This document shows positions 9,701-43,943 of a DNA stretch of 64,000 bases, piece by piece. The position numbers were made by a program, and so were the translations under genes. The stretch's first letter is position 1. Every line of letters starts with the position of its first letter. Source of the DNA: Bimastos eiseni (Eukaryota; Annelida; Clitellata; Crassiclitellata; Lumbricidae); contig OY365817.1 in the NCBI GenBank assembly GCA_959347315.1, forward strand, positions 2,390,295-2,454,294, given 5' to 3'. The notes below the pieces were generated by a model. It worked only from the letters and a program-made list of their open reading frames with translations, searched no databases and was not told where the DNA came from.

Positions 9701-11116
9701 CTGACCTTAAAACCATCAGCCAACCGCAGTTCAAGATTGTATCACGTGATCAAATCACGCGCTTCGGTTGCTAACATTATTCTGCTTCAAAACGAGACCA
9801 TGAAGGCGGGAAATCTCGAACCACAACCTAATTAAATATGACAACAAAGATAGCGAAATTTGAACCGAAATTATGATTTTCCGTCTCGTAACATTATAGG
9901 GCTGTTGGTAAAAATCTTTTTTGAAGCCTTTATGAAAGTCCAAACAAAAGTTTTATATATTATTTGTATTAAATATATATTTTTGTAATCGTTTCTGCAT
10001 TAATATCAATTACGACCGGTTTGAGGTTTCACGTCATTTTTGGTCATTTTAAACCTGATTGTAACCAGCGACAAGCGACTGCTTTCGAAAAAATTTTCCA
10101 CTAATTATCAAAGAACGTTTCTGACAATTTTTTTCTGTTGGGCGGTACGCGCACCAATATTATGTTTAGTTTGGGGTACAACATCATAAAAAATAAGGAT
10201 GGGATCCGCTGCCCTATGCGATAAACAAAGCTAATAGCCATTGAACTGTATTCAAATAGGCGCTAATAGCTAAGGAATATTAGAATGGATCAATACATTC
10301 ATCGCGCCTGAACGTCGGATGACATCTGGCGAAAAAGTTGTAAACTATATTAGACGAATGCTTCAAACGTGTGGTTTCAACTCGATTTGTGTACATTAAA
10401 CATCTATATTGCATATATTAGGTATTAAACAATGATTAATCAAATATTTGGCTGCATAACGGACTCGGTTTCATGTTTTTCCAATATATTCGGCACTGTG
10501 GTGCGACGTGTGCCTAAAAAGTCGTTTAAACTTTAAACACCTCAACAGACGTTGACTTATTTTGACTAATAAGCCCTGAAACGAGTCGTGGTTTAAGATC
10601 ATACTTTTAGGGATCATTTCTATAGTATGTATCGCCAGGACGTCAGGTAAAACTGATTACTGGACCGCAAACCAGGATGATGAGACGGAGCGTTTCTTCC
10701 TGAGCGTGAGAACGACTCTGCCGTGGAATGTTCTCGGTCCACAAGGCAGAGCTCGGCGATGATCGTTCCCTTGGACTTCAATAAAAGACCAGGTGGAGGG
10801 AGGAAACGCAGTCTGACTGGTTTGTGAAATAAAATAAGGAAGAAGTCGAGTAAGGTTTTTGATCAGAGCTATCGACTGTCTGTGGCGATGCGTTCGCACA
10901 ATTAATCAAGCAGCATCAATTTTATAAATCCTAGCAATAAACTCTTTAAAAGGTGTCGTTTTACCCTGTCTAAGAATGTCTTTCTGTCTCTTTGAACTGA
11001 CCTCGAATTTGATCGGATTTGTATCGGTGCGCCGTAGGTTGATGCTTTGCGTGTTACTATGGCGGCGCTATAGAAGTCTTTTTAGCTACTATGGTCATAC
11101 TTTGGATGGCAATATA
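9701..11116 (-). other. Dynein intron (middle part), no gene seen
   Basis: The stretch is AT-rich without a recognisable domain, RNA gene or repeat boundary on either strand, apart from low-complexity AT runs near 9950-9980. Confidence 0.4.
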
Positions 11117-14999: not shown

Positions 15000-17900
15000 C
15001 AGTGGCTTAGGCAGGATTCCCCAAGGGGGGGGTTAGTATAGGCACTTTTGGGATAGTCATTTTCCCCCTCTAGATCTACAATAAATTAGAGGGCTCAATG
15101 AGCCAGGATTTTTTTAAAATTTTAGTCTTTTTTGCAATGCAACAGTTTTTTTGTGATATTACAAACACAAATACTTTTTTTAAATCGGCTAAGGCGCATA
15201 TCTAGTGATTTTATAACAATGGAAAAAAATTACAAACATATGCTCAAGCCTTAAATTTCATATGATTATAAAATAGCCCTGCCTATGCAAATCAGTCTTT
15301 GTGGCACATTGATAATGCAGATTCCATTAAAATTACAAAAATCCAAATAATTTGGACCAACTTCATTAAAAACTTTCAACTTAAGTAGAACTTTCAGGTG
15401 AACAACAGTATTAAATTATTGTCAATTTATTTTGGTCTTTAAGACTTCAATGCACACCGTGTGCAATTGTTTAACAATAGCACCTTTAACTAAGGTGTGC
15501 AGCACACCAATGACCAGCAACAGTTTGTCTATAATGTATAGTCACTTTGTTACATTATAGCAAAGTCCAAACGCCTTTGCTGTTTCATAAATTCCTTCAT
15601 TATTTCATCGGTAGTTGGAGTATGTGCGCGATGGATATTCAAAAGGGCCAGTCCATTGAGTCGTGTTTCGCTGCTAGTGTTTCGTAGATACGTTTTCAAT
15701 CGTCGGAGAGTCGAAAATGACCGCTCACTGGTACATGTGGATACGGGTAGTGTAGATAGGATTTGCAGAAGCTTTCTTATGTTTGGTTGCAATGTTGCAT
15801 TACAGACAGCCAGGGCGTCTAAGGCATTTCTTGGAATATCATCTTGACTCACACGTGACAGACGACGATACCATAATTTCGTTTCTGCAATAGCTGAATC
15901 TACATCACAATCTAGATCTTCATGATAAAACTCCACAAGATGCTTAAGGTCCTCCAACTGTTCACGAGATGGTGAATTATTCGGATCTTTAGGAAGAAGA
16001 CACTGGAAGCCTTGAAGAACACTCTTGTGATCTAAGAATCTAGATTGAAGTTGACTTATGAACGAGTCCAAGAATGGAATGTAAATTGCAATTTTGTAAT
16101 ATTCCTCATCAGAGGTAGTTGAAATGTTGCATCGTTTAGTTTGTTTTGCAGCTTTTCTTGGTCGCTTTAATGCAAAATCATGTTTTTCTGCAACCTCAGA
16201 TACAGCAACATACAACTTTTTAAATTCATCATCTGCTTCTTCTCTCAAACGTTGCACTTCTGCCATGATGTCTTCTGCTGAGTGCATGGCTTCCACAAGA
16301 TCAAGGTCAATCTTTTGGAATTCTTTACAAAGTTGCTTGCTATAGTTAAACACTTGAGCTGTGCAATGCAGAGCAATGTTGAACTCTGCTTGCTTCATGG
16401 CGCATAGAAGCTGCGTGGCTTGTGATGACGTATCTCTATCATTCTGATATATCATCTAAGGCAGAGAAAACAGCATCTTGAAGTTCTAAAAATGCAGATA
16501 CAGAGTTGTGCCTTTCGACCCATCTCGTTGCACACATCTGCGTCAATTTTTTTATATTAGACTTCGGACATGCCTCTGATATGGCCGATGATAAACAAGT
16601 TGCCTTTTTGGTGTATTTAAGAAATTGTACACTTTTGCTATTGTGCCCATGCAATTTCGAACAGACTGGACTTCACATGCATTTGAAATTGCTAAGTTCA
16701 AGCTGTGGGCAGCACAATGGACATAAATTGCTGTTGGAATTCATGCCCTTATGTGTGTCTGAACTCCATTATACTGACCGCTCATTGCCGCTGCTCCATC
16801 GTATCCCTGCCCTCGCATTTTGCTCAAGTCTATTCCATATGAACTAAGTGCTTCGAGGATTTTGGTTGCTATGCCAATACCAGTTGCTTCAGTGAGAGGT
16901 TCAAACTGTAGAAATATTTCATTGACTATATTTGTTGAAATATCGACAAATCTAGCACAAAGGGATAACTGTTCCACTCCTGAAATATCAGCCGTTTCAT
17001 CTGCCAAGATGGTAAAACAAGCAGCTTCATTTATTTGTTTCACCAGCTTCGTCAAAATGATGCTGTTGCAATCTGTAATAATATTGTTTTGTATTGTCGG
17101 ACTGGTATATCGTGCATTTCCTGCACTCAAGAGAAGCAAGTTTCTTGTGTCATCATTGATACTACCGTAATGTCGTAAAATTGCTCTAAAATTTCCATCG
17201 TTCTCCAGTGGTTCTTCTAGTGTTATCGGTCTAGAATCGCGGTGACCTCGTAAAGCTAGCCCTTGTCGTCCACACAGCAACACCGTTTCAATAATTGGAA
17301 TTATTCTTTTCCTATTTTTCAAAGCTTGACGTTGGCTTTCTTTGTTCAACTGTATCTCGATGGGGTCCTGAATTCCAGACACAATTCCAGTCAGCATATC
17401 TGATTCTTCAATACAATTTAGGTGATACTTTTTGTTTGATGTGCATCGAAACATTCTTTTGCATCTTTCCATTTGTTAAATTTCTTTTTGCATAGTTGGC
17501 CTAACGGCTGTCGACCTATGCCAGCTCCATCTTGAGCAAAAAGAACACAGTATTTACAAAATGCACCCTGCTCCAAGTCAGAGAATGCCAACCATTTCCA
17601 CTGAGAAAACCAATGGTATTTAAAACGTAAATTTCTGTTGCCTGCCGCAAATTCATAAGTGCTGCTTGGCATCCAGATGTTGTTTAACATATCGATTTTT
17701 TTCTCGTTTGGTACCTTCACATTGACATAATTTCAGATGTCGTTGGGATGAGTCGTTCGAATGTTTGGTGAAGGTGACAGATCAACTTCATCACGATGGC
17801 TCTCGATTGTTGCAATTGTTTCCACAACCAATGAAAGTGGAGCCACTTCTACTGAACATTCAGTTGGTAACTCAGCTGCGGCATCAGGTGGTGTACGAAC

Positions 17901-29000: not shown

Positions 29001-30513
29001 CTAACGACGTCGTTGTTAACTGTTCGTTATTTGGTCTTATTACTGCGTCGTTTCTACAATGTAAGAGATACTTCTGAGAACTTAAGGAAGGATCAAAATT
29101 GGTCTGGAAAAAAAGCTGGTGTGCAAAGAAAATACCCAGAGAAAGAAATTGTGAAAATCGTTCTGGATCAGTTTGTTGACAGATTAACAAGAAAAACGTT
29201 TTAGGTAGATAGATAGGCCATAAAAGTAGGCGTATAATTATATGTTTAGCCATACAGTAGGACTACAGTAGCGGTATTTTTGTATTGCTTTGCTTCATGC
29301 TAATCAGGTTGTCTGACATTATGATATTATTTTCTTTGTTAATCCACTTATTACTTCACTAATAATAATTATTATTTTATTTCGGTCTTGGTTTGACGAT
29401 AGGCTAAGAGTGCTTGCGAAAGCGGCTGGTTCCCCGCGACTGGCCGATGTAAAAATCTCGAGATCACGCTTAGAAACATAGCTTATAGGCCTTCTATCGA
29501 TATATTAATTATTAATATAATAATAATAATTATTATTATTACTATTATTATACTGCTGTTGTTGTCAGTTTGAAATTAAACACGCTGTCGGTGTTGCTGT
29601 TATTATTGTTAATATTATTATTATTATTACTACTACTACTACTACTCCACCCATTGCTACTACTACTACTACTACTACTGCTGCTGCTACTAATATTATT
29701 ATCAATACTACTTTTAACTTTCAGCTTTTACATTCAAATTTATTCAGTTTACATAATAATGACGTGAACATTATTATAATTATTATTATTACCATTATTA
29801 TATCATTATTATTATTATATTATTATTATTATTATTTATATTATTATTATATTATGCTGTTATCGCCCACGTGGGCGAGCTAAGTGAGTGGTGGCAATGT
29901 CCCGAAGAGGCAGGCGGCGTTCCCACGCTGAAGAACAACCGAGATACGTTGGAACAGAAATGACGTCTCCATTGGATCGTGGGTTGCAACACTCGTTCGA
30001 CTACCCAACTCTGAGATGAACTGCAGTCCTTCACTGCTCCAAGCGCCGCCGGATTCCAAGGAGAGGGCTACGAAGTCGTGGGTGTTGGTTATGGTGGAAT
30101 ACTTGGCCCTCTTCGTCTTAGCTACGCGTTCGGCTGCTTCGCCAGCTCTGATAGATGTGTCGGCAAGATGTGACTTGGCGTAGGTGTCGGGCACTGTTAT
30201 TATTACTATTATTTTTATTATTATTATCACTGCTACCTCCACGTCCACCACTCCTCCTCCTCCTCCTCCAACTACTACTACTACTCCAGTAACTCCACCC
30301 CTACCACTGCTACTACTACTGCTACTACTAATACTCCACCTACTACTTCCCTACTAGCCCCTGTTACTACTACTACAGCAACAACAATAACAATAATAAT
30401 AATACATTTTTAATCATTAAAAAAAGCAAGGCATTTTGATTACGATCGTTGTATGATCGGGAGCGCCGATGATTTGCTTTAAAAATGTTCATTTACAATT
30501 ACAATTACAAGTT
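26099..30513 (-). other. Dynein intron (3' part), repeats only
   Basis: This is part of a 7.7 kb intron. It contains a reversed SINE-like piece (about 26600-26650), a TTTAACGACATCATATGACA repeat copy at 27434, a T-rich pyrimidine tract (27560-27750), a duplicated AT-rich segment with GATCA...CACGTGA...GATAAACACGTGGT at about 28200-28250 and 28450-28512, and (ATT/ACT)n arrays at 29515-29870 and 30195-30410. The short open frames near 29000-29200 show no domain. Confidence 0.6.
29866..30190 (-). mobile_element. LINE reverse-transcriptase C-terminal fragment
   Basis: The minus-strand translation includes HDFVALSLESGGAWSSEGLQ, FISELGSRTSVATHDP and FLFQRISVVLQRGNAACLFG. This is the conserved C-terminal signature of certain non-LTR retrotransposon ORFs (ETxGxWG...FLxQRISxxxQRGNAA). 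No RT catalytic motif is present. It is flanked by (ATT)n and (CCTCCA)n repeats. Confidence 0.65.
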
Positions 30514-31084
30514 AGGGGCCCTTCACATATTATATAACGCTCAAGGGGTAGGTGGGTGGGTTCTGGTTTTGTTAGCGTTATAATGTGTAGGGTGGGAGGT
30601 AGGTTGAAGGTTTTGTTATATAACAAACTTTTTCAGCTTTTGCTATATTGCCTGTTTGCTTGCAAATTGGAAATTCTATGTACCACGGACCTTCATTGCT
30701 TCAATCGAAGTTCACAATACGTTGTGAACCAAAACTAGCACCATTAGCTGCCACCTGGCGAATTGATTTGATGTTCTTAGTTATTATTTTATAAATCCAC
30801 TTTTAACAATTTGCTGTTTACAATTTTAACAATTTCCTGTGCATAGCCTTAAACGCTCTAAAATTCAATTATGTGTGCTTTGTTTTGATTCTGGTATAAA
30901 TTAAAACTAATTCACTTGAAATAATTATTTTGATTGGTATTACGATGTTTGATTTCATTTTGCTATAGTATGTGTAAATAGTTTATGTTTGCTTAAATAA
31001 ACAATTGCAGTTCGGTAGTACACCACCCTGTTAACATCATACGCTATTAAATAGGTAGAGTTGTACCGCGAAGTTATCGATAAA

Positions 31085-31560
31085 TACCTGATAGTGCAAT
31101 ATTAAACCAGAATGGAAGGTCAATGCTTAGAGGCACATGTGATATATGTGGAAAGACAAAGACACAATTCGCGAAGTCTTCTGAAGGTGGTGATTTAGTT
31201 GGATCTTTAAATTCGGTTACCAGCGGTATTAAGCTGCCGTGGGTTAAATATCCAGGTGAGAGGTAATTGAAGGGACATTCGTTTACTGGTCCTGGTACTA
31301 GCCTTGAATCGAGGCTGAATTCCGATTGAACTCCTGAGGATTGGTCGAAGCCCATCAATAGAGTCGACAACGCTGCATATCATCACGATTTAGCTTACGA
31401 CCAGCACTCGGATACAGCTTCTAGGAATGTCGCCGATAGAGTGATGGTTAATGAGTTGAATAATATTCCTAATCCTAGCTTACGAGAGCGAATAGAAAGA
31501 AGTCTTGTGAAACCTGTGTTATCTACCAAAGCTAATCTCGGGTTAGGTTTAAAAAAACCT
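31085..31560 (+). pseudogene. Parvovirus VP1-type phospholipase A2 domain remnant
   Basis: One plus-strand frame contains a PLA2 catalytic-type motif (HHDLAY) preceded by a conserved WSKPINRVD-like stretch and followed by ASRNVADRVMVNEL. This is the pattern of the PLA2 domain carried by parvovirus capsid proteins (calcium-dependent lipid hydrolysis during entry) and by related invertebrate mobile-element proteins. At least two in-frame stops (about 31266 and 31324) lie upstream of the motif, and the frame ends before the integrase frame, so no intact protein is encoded. It is an old genomic copy, described only as found. Confidence 0.65.
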
Positions 31561-31570
31561 AAAATTACAA

Positions 31571-32515
31571 TGGACCGACCAACTCGCGGATGAGTTACAT
31601 AAGCCTGTAGTAAGACGTTTTAGGAAGAGGAAGGTGTACGTTGGTGGTATAGATGAAATATGGGCTGCTGATTTAGTCGATATGCAGGCTTTTGCTAAAG
31701 ATAACGATAGTGTGAAATACTTACTAACCGTAATAGATGTGTTTTCCAAGTACGGTTGGATCGTGCCATTAAATGATAAGAGTGGAAAATCTGCGGCTAG
31801 CGGCTTCGTGAAAATATTCGAGAGCGGTAGAAGACCAGGCAAGGTTTGGGTGGACAAAGGTAAAGAATTGTATAATAAAGACGTTAAGAAATTAGTCGAG
31901 TTGTATTCTACGGAGAATAAAGAAAAGTCGTGCGTTGTTGAGCGTTGGAATAGAACAATGCGTGAAAAAATGATGGAGTATTTTACACCTAATTCAACTA
32001 GAAGATATATCGATGTGTTTGATGAAATGGTTAGTAATTATAATGAAACTAGGTATTCTTCCATTGAAATGACACCCTCTAAAGCTAGTTTGAAAATGAA
32101 TGAAAAGGTAGTTTGGATGAACTTATACGGTGATGAGATCTCGAAACCTATTATACCCAGGTTTTCGATCGGTGATAAAGTTAGAATAACGAAGCAGAAG
32201 AACATCTTTGAAGAAGGTTTTACACCGAGATGGACGGAAGAGATTTTCACAATTTCAAAGATTCAATACACGGATCCACCAACTTATAAGATCACTGATT
32301 ATAATGGTGAGGAAATACAGGGCTCATTTTACGAACAGGAGCTACAGAAGACTACTCAAGAAATATTTAGAATAGAAAAAGTTATTAGGAAACGGAGAAA
32401 CAAGTCGCTGATGACATGGTTGGGTCATCCTGAGTCATTTGTTTCCTGGGTTGGGATAATGAAGACTTGGTGGCCACGTGATGACTCATCATCGAAACTA
32501 TTGAAAATTTCCTGA
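31571..32515 (+). CDS. rve-type integrase with chromodomain-like tail
   Basis: An uninterrupted frame (first ATG 31634, 293 codons; protein-like sequence extends upstream to about 31571) carries an RNase H-fold integrase core. It includes DLVDMQAF, then LLTVIDVFSKYGWIVPL, a second Asp in VWVDKGKEL, and Glu in VVERWNRTMREKM, giving the D,D-35-E arrangement. A C-terminal SH3/chromo-like part has RFSIGDKVRITK and LGHPESFVSWVG. The family is that of the transposon-derived protein F54H12.3. It catalyses strand transfer of element ends. The core looks intact, but the element is missing its right half, so mobility is unlikely. It lies in a dynein intron, antisense to the gene. Confidence 0.8.
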   Translation, partial: WTDQLADELHKPVVRRFRKRKVYVGGIDEIWAADLVDMQAFAKDNDSVKYLLTVIDVFSKYGWIVPLNDKSGKSAASGFVKIFESGRRPGKVWVDKGKELYNKDVKKLVELYSTENKEKSCVVERWNRTMREKMMEYFTPNSTRRYIDVFDEMVSNYNETRYSSIEMTPSKASLKMNEKVVWMNLYGDEISKPIIPRFSIGDKVRITKQKNIFEEGFTPRWTEEIFTISKIQYTDPPTYKITDYNGEEIQGSFYEQELQKTTQEIFRIEKVIRKRRNKSLMTWLGHPESFVSWVGIMKTWWPRDDSSSKLLKIS

Positions 32516-32755
32516 CGTCTTTCTTAGTCTGTTGGTTGATGTTTGACCTAGGGCTTTTGTTTTGTGTATCAATTGGTTATTTTTAGCCTATAAACAGGTT
32601 AAAAATACGTTTTGGCAACCTATTAGGTAGGTGACTTTGAGCTATGTTATGGTCAATTGTCCCAGATAGCGCGGTTTATACCTACTAAGCCAACAAGGAG
32701 GCGGCTTCACAGTCTGGAATCCATGCACCGGGTTTGTGGTAGTTGCATCTTAAAG

Positions 32756-32832
32756 ACACTGTGCAATAACGAAGACCATCAGCGTCGCCTTCCTTCATTA
32801 CCCAGGATTGGGACTGGCAATGCCAGAGTGCA
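32756..32832 (+). repeat. Dispersed SINE-like copy
   Basis: This is the GACACTGTGCAATAACGAAG ... CGTCGCCTTCC ... GGGACTGGCAATGCCAGAGTG unit. It immediately precedes the LTR-like minisatellite region. Confidence 0.7.
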
Positions 32833-32879
32833 AACAGTGGCCGAGTTGTACCGGTTTGTCATTGTGAAGTTTTCCGCTA

Positions 32880-33640
32880 GTTCAGCTTGGGGAAGGGGAG
32901 CGATATGTGCTACCCCTGTGCTACCCCGGGTAGCACTCTGTGCGGACTGTTCTACCTCTGTGTTACCCCTCTTGGCGGGCTGGGCTACCCCTCTTGTTAC
33001 CCCTGGTAGCACTCTGTGTTACCCCCTCTTGGCAGGCTGTGCTACCCCTGTGCTACCCCTCTTGGCGGGCTGTGCTACCACTGTGCTACCTCTCTTGGCG
33101 GGCTGTGCTACCCTTTTGCTACCCCTCTTGGCGGTCTGTGCTACCCCTGTGATACCCGGGGAGCACTATGGGCTACCCTGGGTAGCACTATGTGCTACCC
33201 CGGGTAGTACTCTGTGCTACCCCTCTTGGCTATATAACTGACTGTAGAGCTCAGACGTGAGGATAAATCAGTGGCAGTTTAGTAGTTAGTAGAGTCGCTG
33301 GCAGTCTGCTGTCGATTATTTGATTGTGACTATTATTGACTGTTCGCAGCTGCTGTACTTTACAATAAAGAATATTTCTCGAGCAACGTGTGTGACTTCA
33401 TCGCTAGCATAGTGACTCTGATTGTACCACCGGGACAGTCTTAAATCCTGCGCCAGACCGGGTAGGTCTTACCCAATGGATAATCAAGAAGAAGACGCGG
33501 AAAACCTCGGAGCTCGGCCTTCCGATGTACCAGAAGAAGACGGGAAGGAATTTAAGGTGTTCCCAGGGCGTTCGCCCCAACTGCTGCTGTCACGCGACGC
33601 CCGGTGTTGGACCGTAAGGGGATTCGCCATAAAATGATAC
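32880..33640 (+). mobile_element. LTR-like region with minisatellite and gag-like start
   Basis: A GC-rich tandem array of a CTCTTGGCGGGCTGTGCTAC-type unit (about 36-39 bp, 32905-33230) is followed by TATATAA (33230-33236) and ACAATAAAGAATA (33361). This is a promoter-to-polyA spacing typical of an LTR. Behind it ATGGATAATCAAGAAGAAG (33476) opens 53 codons (MDNQEEDAENLGARPSDVPE...) that look like the start of a gag-type protein and stop at 33635. No second LTR or pol is seen. A fragmentary LTR retrotransposon is the best reading, but the LTR ends are not defined. Confidence 0.4.
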
Positions 33641-41219: not shown

Positions 41220-43943
41220 CTAAATTTTAAATGTCAAGTATTCGTAATCGTAATCTCCAAATTTCTAAAGCGCCACTTTAAGGCTATGCGCGGGGCACCA
41301 GCTCATTCACGAGCGCTGCGTCAAATCAAAGGGGTGTCCAAAGGATAGTCCGTGGGCGGTCAGAGTTCGGTTACCAGGAAGTCAGCAGGGAGGCAGAGTA
41401 GCTGTTAAGGAGGGTGTCGCTTTGGTCGAGGATTGACAGGTGGGATGTCAAGTAGTGAGTCTGGGTAAGAGTTCTTGAAAAGGTGGGATTTAAGTTTAGG
41501 ATGGAAAGCCGGGGTGTGATGGACAGAGGCGCTAGGGACAGATGATGCTGCATGACGGGAAATGATGCTGAAGGAACCGAGAAGGCACGAAATTCAGGAG
41601 GTAGGTCGTACCAGAGACGAGGTGCGGCGTTTGATATTGCGCGGTTGGAGAACTTGAGATGAGATGTGATCGGAGGTCGAGTGAGGGTGAGGCAAGAGGA
41701 CGATCGGGTAGAGCGGGTTGGCTGGATGGTGAAGAGTTCGCGAAGATATTTGGGCTGTGAATATTGTATGGAGTTGTAAGTTAATGATAAGATTTTGAAG
41801 TGAATGCGCTCTGGGATTTTTAGCCAGTGAAGTGACTTGAGGATTGGGGTGATGTGATGATGCTTGGGTGTTCTGGTGACGGCTCTGGCTAATGAGTTTT
41901 TAATTAGTTGTGAACGTTTGATTTGTGTGGCTTCAAGGTTGAGGAAGAGGGAGTTGCAGTAGTCGAGCTTGGAGTGGACGATGGAGGTAGCAATGGTGGA
42001 AGCAGTTTTGAAGTCGAGCATGGGTCGGATGCGGCTGAGGTCTCGAATGTGCATGAAACAGGAGCGAGAGAGGTTTGAGATGTGATTGGAGAAAGAGAGA
42101 TGAAGATCAAAGGTGACGCCAAGATTTCGGACTGGGGCATCTGAGGTGAAGGGAAGGGATGAAGAGTTAGTGGGTAAGTGAATTGCAGGATCGGGTATTT
42201 TCTTGATTTTGTCAGGGAGGCCTATGAGGATAAATTCTGTCTTGGAAGGGTTGAGGCAGAGGAGGTTAGATGACATCCATTCGAAGACTAAGTTTACTAC
42301 ATTCAGTAGTTGTGCAATGGAGGTGGAGAAAGAGGTTGGGGAGAAGGATATGTAGAGTTGAGTGTCATCTGCATACAGGTGGTGGTCGACAGAGGAGGAT
42401 TGTATGAGATGACTTAAGGGTGTGGTATAGAGGATGAAGAGGAGTGATCCTAGGACGGAGCCTTGAGGGACACCACATGTGAGTGGAAGGGGTTGCGAGC
42501 AGAGTTCGGAGGCCTTGACAGAGAAGGAACTGGAAGATAAGTAGGATTGGAACCAGAGTAGAGCAGTTCCAGAAACGCCAAACCAAGAGGATAGTCTAGT
42601 CAAGAGAAGGCTGTGGTCAATGGTATCAAATGCAGCAGAGATGTCGAGGAGGCCGAGACAGGAAACTTGTTGATGGCTGACGGCAGAGACCAATTTCTTA
42701 TCTAAAGAGACAAGCAGAGTTTCTGTGGAGTGGTGTTTAGTGAAGCCTGATTGGTGGGGGTTTAGCAGTGAGTTTGTTGAGGCGGGTAAGAACAATTCAT
42801 TCAGTTAGTTTAGACAGAAAGGAGAGGTTAGAAATGGGACGGTAGTTAGAAAGACTCTCTTTGTCTAGATTTGCTTTTTTCAGTAGGGGAAAGACGATAG
42901 ATTGTTTAAAGACCTTAGGGAAAATTTCCGGTAGAAAGCGAAAGATTGATGATTTTAGTGATAATAGGAACAAGGATTGAGGCACAGTCTTTTAGGAGAG
43001 AGGTTGGGATAGGATCGAGTTCACATTGCTTGTTGGGAAGGGAATTTGGGAGGAGTAGTACTTCTGATTCAGTGGCAGGAGATAGAATTGAGAGCGATGA
43101 CTGATGCGAAGGCGGAGTAGGGTTGGGAGAAATCAGTGGAACAGTGTTGGAGGAGTTGGAGGCTAGAAGAGATTGTAGTGTGAAACGAAGAGATGAGATT
43201 TTGTCTGAGAAGAAAGAGCAGAAGGTGTCAGCGATAGAGGATGTGGGGATGGAGCTGGGCAGTGGTGAGGGAGACTTACGATGAAGAGAATTGATAGCTT
43301 TCCAGAGGTGTCTAGGATTGGAGGAACTGGAGTGGATAAGCGAGGAGTAGTATTTTTTCTTGGCTGCAGCGATAAGGTTATGGTATCTGTGTGTGGCTGA
43401 TTTGAGGGTAGACAGGGTTTTTGCTTTAGATGTTGAGTCTTTGGCGGGCTTGTAGGTGTGCTCAAAGCGCCTGCAGAAGGTTTTGAAAGCTTGGAGATAG
43501 GAGGTGAACCAAGGGTTAGATGTGCGTGAGCTGTGTGTGATAATGAGTGGTGCATGAGTGTCACGGAGGTTGGAGAGTGTTGAATTGGAACAAGACAGAA
43601 GATCATCTAGAGAAGGAGGAGGATTGAGGATAAGTTCGGAGTTAAGAATGTCCTTGATGAAGGCCTGACGGTCGATGGACCCGATGGAACGAGATGAGTG
43701 AGTGGTTGGAGGAGGGCGAGGAAAAGGCTTAATTTCGAGGTCGACAATGATAAGGTAGTGGTCGGTAATGTTTAGAATTGAGTGTGATAGCTTTGGAGAT
43801 AGGTGGGAGGCTGCGGAAGTGATAACAAGGTCGAGTGTGTGGTTCTTGATCTGGGTCGGAAAGTTGACGTGTTGAACGAGATTGAATGATGAGAGACGGC
43901 TGAGGAAGCCAGATGCAAGAGTATCAGAGGGATTGTGCGACAT
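41220..43943 (-). mobile_element. CR1/L2-type LINE, 5'-truncated, frameshifted
   Basis: The minus-strand ORF part 43943-42915 carries the end of an endonuclease domain and the linker (VITSAASHLSPKLSHSIL, NPRHLWKAINSLHRKSPSP). 42985-42797 carries [17 protein letters not shown]. 42795-41371 carries the reverse transcriptase, with motif A (LLDISAAFDTIDHSLLL), motif B (GVPQGSVLGSLLFILY) and motif C (YADDTQLY), ending in the C-terminal NAAPRLWYDLP region. The three pieces are in different frames, so at least two frameshifts inactivate it. The 3' tail (41370-41220) holds the GGCACCAGCTCATTCACGAG segment and ends near GTAATCGTAATC. Target-primed retrotransposition would explain the 5' truncation. 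Confidence 0.9.

What the first reader, a model, noticed from the sequence alone, without database searches (positions are those of the whole stretch)
30515..32515. Mobile element pairing a parvovirus-type PLA2 domain with an rve integrase
A single TIR-ended element carries a (now broken) VP1-type phospholipase A2 domain immediately upstream of an intact-looking integrase with a chromodomain-like tail. Known members of the two families are parvovirus capsids (PLA2) and Polinton/adintovirus or F54H12.3-type elements (integrase). The combination suggests a capsid-bearing, integrating DNA virus/transposon lineage resident in this genome. The PLA2 and integrase frames adjoin within about 15 bp but are offset, hinting at either an ancestral fusion or closely packed genes.
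Basis: partly seen in the sequence, partly recalled or inferred. Interest (0 to 1): 0.8.

Follow-up and report, generated by a model that had tools for sequence, protein, structure and literature searches.

The report
Earthworm Maverick fragment with phospholipase-integrase gene
The spot is a worn-out piece of a virus-like mobile element, present in hundreds of copies in what looks like an earthworm genome, in which a capsid-type membrane-cutting enzyme and the DNA-inserting enzyme appear to be made as one joined protein, probably by a slip of the ribosome.

Summary
The PLA2-integrase pairing is real, but it is not one TIR-ended element. Window 31109-32686 is a right-terminal fragment of a high-copy Maverick/Polinton; 30515-31108 is half of an unrelated ~1.2-kb repeat. 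In this 660-Mb genome (COX1 points to an earthworm) two longer copies have AGTAGT//ACT-type ends and 6-bp target duplications, and 27 of 150 scored PLA2 places have a scored double-jelly-roll capsid match within 12 kb, all in one arrangement. Elsewhere PLA2 and integrase share one ORF in 25 of 26 proteins found with the PLA2 half (only lengths of about 271-861 aa could be found). Here they sit in different frames at TTTAAAAAAAG: of 92 junctions the integrase is in -1 in 53, +1 in 34, in frame in 5. The PLA2 frame stops right after the A-run in 47 of the 53, and 73 of 79 integrase frames have no Met before the first catalytic Asp. I read this as Gag-Pol-like -1 frameshifting; no stimulatory structure was found and nothing was tested at the bench. 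PLA2 genes in Mavericks are published; a PLA2-integrase polyprotein was not seen in the papers searched.

The parts
30515..31108 (+). Left half of an unrelated ~1.2-kb dispersed repeat (TIR-ended, MITE-like), cut off where the Maverick fragment begins; not part of the PLA2-integrase element
31109..32686 (+). Right-terminal fragment (1,578 bp) of a Maverick/Polinton; left end truncated, right terminus (..CCTACT) kept
31109..31266 (+). DUF5679 piece of the PLA2 frame, N-terminus missing, ends at a stop
31267..31593 (+). Parvovirus-type PLA2 domain, interrupted by a further in-frame stop at 31327-31329; GPG motif in the short piece before that stop (seen in the sequence, not searched alone), HHDLAYD after it
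31548..31559 (+). PLA2/integrase junction: T3-A7 run corresponding to the TTTAAAAAAAG site of sister copies; here the junction is of the shorter class and the integrase lies in +1
31553..32515 (+). rve (retrovirus-type) integrase frame, 320 aa stop to stop, D-D-E with the family's short second spacing; last residues depart from the family
32573..32686 (+). Right terminal inverted repeat region of the Maverick (matches the left end of another copy in inverse orientation, 77%)

Best explanation
The window holds a decayed right-end fragment of a Maverick/Polinton that has multiplied to hundreds of copies in this animal genome. SHOWN by sequence: one gene unit encodes a DUF5679 piece (zinc-ribbon-like by its cysteines, by eye) and a parvovirus-type PLA2 followed by an rve integrase; many relatives elsewhere carry both in one ORF; in this host the two halves are in different frames at TTTAAAAAAAG, the PLA2 frame stops just after it, the commonest class has the integrase in the -1 frame, and the integrase frame mostly has no usable ATG. 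INFERRED: most ribosomes make the PLA2 protein (about 170 aa) and a few slip back one base on the A-run and make a PLA2-integrase polyprotein, as retroviruses make Gag-Pol. INFERRED: the join carries a little integrase into particles with the membrane-penetrating PLA2, so that entry and integration travel together.
For: Maverick identity: AGTAGT.. left ends..ACT right ends (one ..CCTACTACT, one ..CCTATTACT) and 6-bp target duplications (TATTTC, TATTAC) in the two copies examined; (AGT)2//(ACT)2 and 6-bp duplications are reported for vertebrate Mavericks (PMC8097293, passages). Double-jelly-roll capsid PF21738 2.2e-36; 126 of 1071 candidates scored in the genome, all 126 over cut-off. PLA2-capsid linkage: 27 of 150 PLA2 places within 12 kb of one of 126 capsid places, 27 of 27 on opposite strands with the capsid 5' of PLA2, 22 of 27 at 5.0-6.7 kb, 0.7 expected. 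One unit: one search gives 26 proteins for the PLA2 half of P0023; 20 bear both Pfam domains and 5 more run in frame into integrase by sequence. Of the 23 aligned, PLA2 matches 23 and rve 22. Junction: 92 of 98 loci given (1 duplicate, 5 without a readable junction): -1 53, +1 34, in frame 5. Whole-genome exact patterns: 220 places, 144 of the -1 length, 67 of the +1 length, 9 all others. PLA2-frame stop directly after the A-run codons in 47 of 53; TTTAAAA in phase in 41 of 53. No Met between the upstream stop and the first catalytic Asp in 73 of 79 copies; 4 of the 6 exceptions are in-frame copies. Copies with and without a 12-bp, frame-keeping insert both have -1 as commonest class (27 of 39; 26 of 53, against 24 in +1).
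Against: Folding just downstream of the A-run is unremarkable (mean z -0.59, sd 1.15, 29 copies); in sliding windows over 12 copies the lowest mean z, -1.12, lay in a window that begins before the site, and it was 0.04 just downstream. Pseudoknots were not modelled. 34 of 92 copies are in +1, nearly as many as -1 among copies without the insert (24 against 26); on the tree the two classes are nearly scattered (23 changes against 27.2, sd 2.1; 19 of 300 shuffles as low), which suggests recurrent A-run slippage or assembly error but leaves some clustering. Of the 120 nearest listed integrases only 6 have PLA2 in the same ORF, and 40 begin with Met within 12 residues before LAEELHKP, so in relatives the integrase may be a protein of its own. 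could not find stand-alone PLA2 proteins shorter than about 271 aa, so its high share of fusions is biased. All junctions come from one genome of decaying copies; no RNA or protein data.
Confidence: 0.55

Rival explanations
1. PLA2 and integrase are two closely packed genes making two proteins; the integrase starts at a non-AUG codon, by reinitiation, or from a spliced or separate transcript. The fused ORFs elsewhere are lineage-specific joins.
For: Spodoptera Mavericks have INT and PLA2 CAP as separate ORFs (PMC5803895). 40 of 120 nearest listed relatives begin with Met just before LAEELHKP. One divergent local copy (L029) has an ATG just before the integrase sequence. No stimulatory RNA structure.
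Against: In this genome 73 of 79 copies have no Met in the integrase frame before the first catalytic Asp, although that stretch is conserved as protein. Fusions at the same join recur down to 38% identity.
Confidence: 0.27
2. The active ancestor was a plain in-frame fusion as in the relatives, and the frame offset is decay of an A-run.
For: Single-ORF fusions exist in many relatives. The A-run is plainly unstable (A6 and A7 in 35 copies each).
Against: The in-frame class is the rarest: 5 of 92 and at most 9 of 220 exact patterns.
Confidence: 0.1
3. A single ~2-kb TIR-ended element.
For: A genuine repeat terminus does lie at 30515.
Against: Full copies of that repeat are ~1.2 kb with their own right end; Maverick copies continue left of 31109 into other sequence. 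Among the 40 places scored only the window's own extends left of 31109.
Confidence: 0.01
4. An endogenous parvovirus capsid gene that happens to sit beside an integrase.
For: The PLA2 domain is characteristic of most parvovirus capsid proteins (PMC4061559, passages).
Against: PLA2 and integrase are repeated together in dispersed copies and fused in distant relatives; the longer copies show a double-jelly-roll capsid.
Confidence: 0.02

Closest known systems
Maverick/Polinton (Polintoviricetes); vertebrate Mavericks of PMC8097293
   Same: AGT/ACT-type termini, 6-bp target duplications, rve integrase, double-jelly-roll capsid gene
   Different: Integrase joined to a DUF5679-PLA2 module; 'PLA2' and 'phospholipase' do not occur in the vertebrate paper's main text. 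PolB, ATPase and protease are not established here
Sf Maverick 1 and 2 (Spodoptera), PMC5803895
   Same: PLA2 'CAP' ORF and INT with chromodomain in one Maverick
   Different: CAP and INT are separate ORFs there; no fusion or frameshift described in the parts read
Adintoviruses (recalled: Starrett 2021; seen through PMC11071296 passages)
   Same: Adenovirus-like virion genes with an rve integrase and chromodomain
   Different: PMC11071296 suggests -1 frameshifting for Penton ORFs; the passages seen do not suggest it for the integrase, and 'PLA2' does not occur
Retroviral Gag-Pol frameshift (works-like comparison; recalled)
   Same: Slippery A-rich site, 0-frame stop just after it, integrase in the -1 frame without a start codon
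   Different: DNA virus-like element; PLA2 instead of Gag; no stimulatory structure found
Prototype foamy virus integrase
   Different: 18-20% identity in the full-length foamy virus rows; chromodomain-like tail; second D-E spacing 28-29 in 125 of 134 proteins read (whose raw figures 29-30 count one residue too many; 11 of 145 proteins not read)

Membership tests
Maverick/Polinton | 6-bp target site duplications | tested here: met
   TATTTC and TATTAC around the two copies examined; not testable on the left-truncated window copy
Maverick/Polinton | Terminal inverted repeats with AGT/ACT end motif | tested here: met
   AGTAGTAGG.. left ends in two copies; right ends ..CCTACTACT and ..CCTATTACT. 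The window copy keeps only the right end..CCTACT
Maverick/Polinton | rve integrase | tested here: met
   Window copy: rve 3.1e-6 but under the curated cut-off, relatives to 6.5e-160; the relative P0023 passes the rve cut-off and its model matches foamy virus integrase
[quoted passage not shown]
   PF21738 2.2e-36 and, after a stop in the same frame, 7.3e-11 in L011; 126 scored places; linkage. Absent from the window fragment
[quoted passage not shown]
   PolB-like pieces in L011/L013 by eye; Endonuclease_7 8.5e-5, 22.8 bits against a cut-off of 23.6; no Pfam family passed cut-off for the other pieces; a genome search for PF03175 did not complete
Maverick/Polinton | FtsK/A32-type packaging ATPase | tested here: inconclusive
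   P-loop ORF in L002:1059-1430-; Pox_A32 0.014, below cut-off
Maverick/Polinton | Adenovirus/Ulp1-type protease and minor capsid protein | not tested
   no dedicated search; none of the 20 ORF pieces scanned with Pfam matched one
Parvovirus VP1-type PLA2 (PF08398) | GPG calcium-loop motif and HDxxY catalytic motif | tested here: met
   GPG and HD..Y invariant in 23 aligned fused relatives; both motifs can be read in the window, on pieces separated by a stop, the HD piece over the Pfam cut-off. The roles of the motifs are recalled
Programmed -1 frameshift (Gag-Pol-like) | Slippery heptamer in phase, 0-frame stop, downstream gene in -1 | tested here: met
   majority class of junctions; the window copy itself is in +1
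Programmed -1 frameshift (Gag-Pol-like) | Downstream stimulatory structure | tested here: inconclusive
   no nested structure; pseudoknots not modelled
Programmed -1 frameshift (Gag-Pol-like) | Measured frameshift product | not testable with these tools
   needs peptides, ribosome profiling or a reporter

The most novel reading that the evidence does not exclude
A lineage of animal Mavericks makes a capsid-type phospholipase-integrase polyprotein, in annelids through -1 ribosomal frameshifting at TTTAAAAAAAG, so a double-stranded DNA virus has come independently to the retroviral Gag-Pol strategy: an integrase carried into the particle on a virion protein at low, frameshift-set dose, ready to insert the genome right after PLA2 opens the endosome.
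Probability: 0.35. Interest if true: 0.8.

Novelty: new variant of a known kind. Interest (0 to 1): 0.55.

Why it matters
Maverick particles had not been observed as of 2021 (PMC8097293, abstract in the listing), and how their integrase reaches a new genome is, as far as I know, open. A conserved join of an entry-type enzyme with the integrase would suggest that the integrase is a virion passenger and that these elements infect cells, and it gives a concrete, testable site. It would also be a case of Gag-Pol-like expression outside reverse-transcribing elements. The counts (220 exact junctions; 653 PLA2 and 1071 capsid first-look candidates, of which 150 and 126 were scored) suggest a large endogenous virus load in an earthworm-type genome.

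Tried and rejected
Rejected: single TIR-ended element; parvovirus capsid remnant; a ribozyme at the right end (Rfam at gathering level found only a U3 snoRNA elsewhere in the window; the best sub-threshold hit in 30400-33300, twister-P1 at 32784-32852 on the - strand, lies outside the element). Led nowhere: IMG/VR scans with the integrase, the 17-sequence alignment, a PolB-like piece and the capsid ORF found no relative; phmmer of the window integrase and of a PolB-like piece against PDB found nothing; NCBIfam and PHROGs gave only sub-cut-off or weak hits; the PDB comparison of the model was filled by the integrase part, so the PLA2 part was barely tested; a paper search for the Pfam name was garbled; a first RNA-folding script failed on a bug and was rewritten.

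Rows dropped before counts: junction survey, 98 loci given, L086 was a duplicate of L007 and L029, L044, L064, L065, L068 had no junction found by the anchors; Met check 79 of 92 readable; A2 left out 8 of the 26 proteins (P0121, P0122, P0123, P0132, P0136, P0138, P0139, P0143) and added 5. Of the 150 PLA2 places, 30 came as loci and 60 more were fetched (rows 31-90 of its table); these are the top-scoring ones, so the sample leans to well-kept copies, and 7 more came in as the best DNA matches to the window. The 'insert' class was set by junction length alone and includes two copies of a more divergent kind (L033, L067). The 14 control genomes gave no match, but those that names are prokaryotes, so they say little.

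Literature: searches listed no paper whose listing, or the passages I opened, describe a PLA2-integrase fusion or an integrase frameshift in Mavericks; for most listed papers only the listing was seen. The original adintovirus paper and most subscription papers were not seen.

Full report
What is there. The window shows a PLA2 frame (31084-31593, with in-frame stops at 31264-31266 and 31327-31329) followed by an integrase frame (31553-32515) in a different frame. Pfam: DUF5679 1e-7 and Phospholip_A2_4 2.9e-7, both over cut-off; rve 3.1e-6, under its cut-off, but the integrase finds 4544 proteins at E<=0.001, the best at 6.5e-160 and 80% identity. The window lies at C12:2390295-2454294 of a 660-Mb, 118-contig assembly. 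A COX1 taken from it (from C15, so probably a nuclear copy) is 97% identical in protein to Eisenia nordenskioldi and 96% to Amynthas, so the host is very probably a clitellate annelid, an earthworm.

Limits of the element. Comparing flanks shows that other copies go on to the left of 31109 and that many agree to window 32686 on the right. So the window copy is a right-terminal fragment, 31109-32686. The stretch 30515-31108 matches another dispersed repeat (40 of 1602 candidates scored, 91-93% apart from self); the five other copies fetched are about 1.2 kb long with short TIRs of their own. The 'TIR-ended element' is therefore two unrelated repeats meeting at 31108/31109.

What the whole element is. 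Two longer copies, read in pieces and never joined, show AGTAGT-beginning left ends, right ends ..CCTATTACT and ..CCTACTACT, and 6-bp duplications TATTTC and TATTAC. By coordinates they span about 13.0 kb (C1) and 7.9 kb (C3); the C1 copy contains an inverted duplicate of part of itself, so the natural length is uncertain. Vertebrate Mavericks have 5'-(AGT)2//(ACT)2-3' ends and 6-bp duplications (PMC8097293, passages). ORFs in the C1 copy include a double-jelly-roll capsid protein (PF21738, 2.2e-36, with the rest of the domain, 7.3e-11, after a stop in the same frame); a third copy (L013) has an F5/8-type-C ORF (1.4e-6, fibre-like by inference) and a NUMOD1 ORF (1.2e-5). A P-loop ORF resembling A32 (0.014, in L002) and PolB-like pieces (Endonuclease_7, 8.5e-5) stay below cut-offs, so ATPase and PolB are not established. 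In the whole genome all 126 scored of 1071 capsid candidates and all 150 scored of 653 PLA2 candidates pass cut-off. 27 of the 150 PLA2 places have one of the 126 capsid places within 12 kb, all 27 on the opposite strand and 5' of PLA2, 22 of them at 5.0-6.7 kb; about 0.7 would be expected. Both lists are truncated, so a low overlap is natural; that the other 123 lack a capsid gene is not shown.

The junction in this genome. In 92 of 98 loci (one duplicate, five unread) the integrase lies in -1 (53), +1 (34) or in frame (5) relative to PLA2. The typical -1 copy reads TTTAAAAAAAGCCTAA: codons TTA AAA AAA GCC TAA in the PLA2 frame. The stop stands there in 47 of 53, and TTTAAAA is in phase in 41 of 53. 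Exact-pattern counts over the whole genome agree: 220 junctions, 144 of the -1 length, 67 of the +1 length, 9 of all other lengths (reversed-pattern control 0). -1 is the commonest class with and without a 12-bp insert (27 of 39; 26 of 53, there only just ahead of 24 in +1), while the insert itself changes only 4 times on the tree. The +1 class, mostly one A fewer, is nearly scattered on the tree (23 changes; shuffles 27.2, sd 2.1, 19 of 300 as low), which fits repeated slippage of the A-run or assembly error. In 73 of 79 readable copies the integrase frame has no Met between its upstream stop and the first catalytic Asp; of the six exceptions four are in-frame copies (in three of them Met residues lie in the PLA2 part) and two are out-of-frame copies with a single Met. 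The stretch before the first Met is nevertheless conserved as integrase protein across relatives, so it is presumably translated somehow.

How it most likely works. Shown: Maverick identity of the family, the PLA2-integrase unit, the offset with a slippery-type run, the stop and the missing start. Inferred: ribosomes mostly stop after PLA2 and sometimes slip -1 to add the integrase, giving a minor PLA2-integrase polyprotein as in retroviral Gag-Pol (recalled); the join takes the integrase into particles. The folding test gave no support (mean z -0.59, 29 copies; windows in 12 copies), pseudoknots were not tested, and no expression data were available. I put the frameshift reading at about 0.55 and separate translation of the integrase at about 0.27.

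Known and new. PLA2 genes in Mavericks are in print: Sf Maverick 1 and 2 have a CAP ORF with PLA2 and an INT ORF (PMC5803895, section 11 part 1 and section 14 read), and PMC3671162 names PLA2 in its genome figure legend (section 5 part 1 read). PMC11071296 proposes -1 frameshifting for adintovirus Penton ORFs (passages). The main texts of PMC11071308 and PMC4028283, searched for the term, do not hold 'phospholipase'. Within searches I saw no PLA2-integrase fusion or integrase frameshift; this is not proof of absence. I call it a new variant of a known kind.

Noticed in passing
window 15550-16455 and 16741-17475, - strand: Remains of a hAT-type transposase: hAT C-terminal dimerisation region 1.6e-11 and DUF4371 3.5e-24.
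   Followed up: partly
window 41371-42804, - strand: Non-LTR-type reverse transcriptase ORF (RVT_1 8.9e-25; 'non-LTR' by eye), with another 342-aa frame upstream at 42915-43943.
   Followed up: partly
window 10595-10821, + strand: U3 snoRNA, full-length match, 134.8 bits.
   Followed up: no
window 33014-33157: 33-bp minisatellite right of the Maverick end.
   Followed up: no
window 30515-31108; L048-L052: High-copy ~1.2-kb TIR-ended repeat, apparently with 3-bp target duplications (read by eye in two copies); not classified.
   Followed up: partly
G000 C15, C16, C6, C5, C4: Near full-length COX1 matches on several chromosome-sized contigs besides the small contig C118: probably nuclear copies of mitochondrial DNA. 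The COX1 used to name the host is the C15 one.
   Followed up: no
P0125, P0143, P0145: Module shuffling: DUF5679-PLA2 on a different integrase (P0125), on fibre-like repeats (P0143, by eye), and a different, HNH-like (by eye) N-terminus on PLA2-integrase (P0145).
   Followed up: partly
L013:5322-5858 - and L013:4378-4719 +: A Maverick copy carries an F5/8-type-C (discoidin) ORF beside PolB-like pieces, possibly a receptor-binding fibre, and a NUMOD1 ORF by the capsid gene.
   Followed up: no
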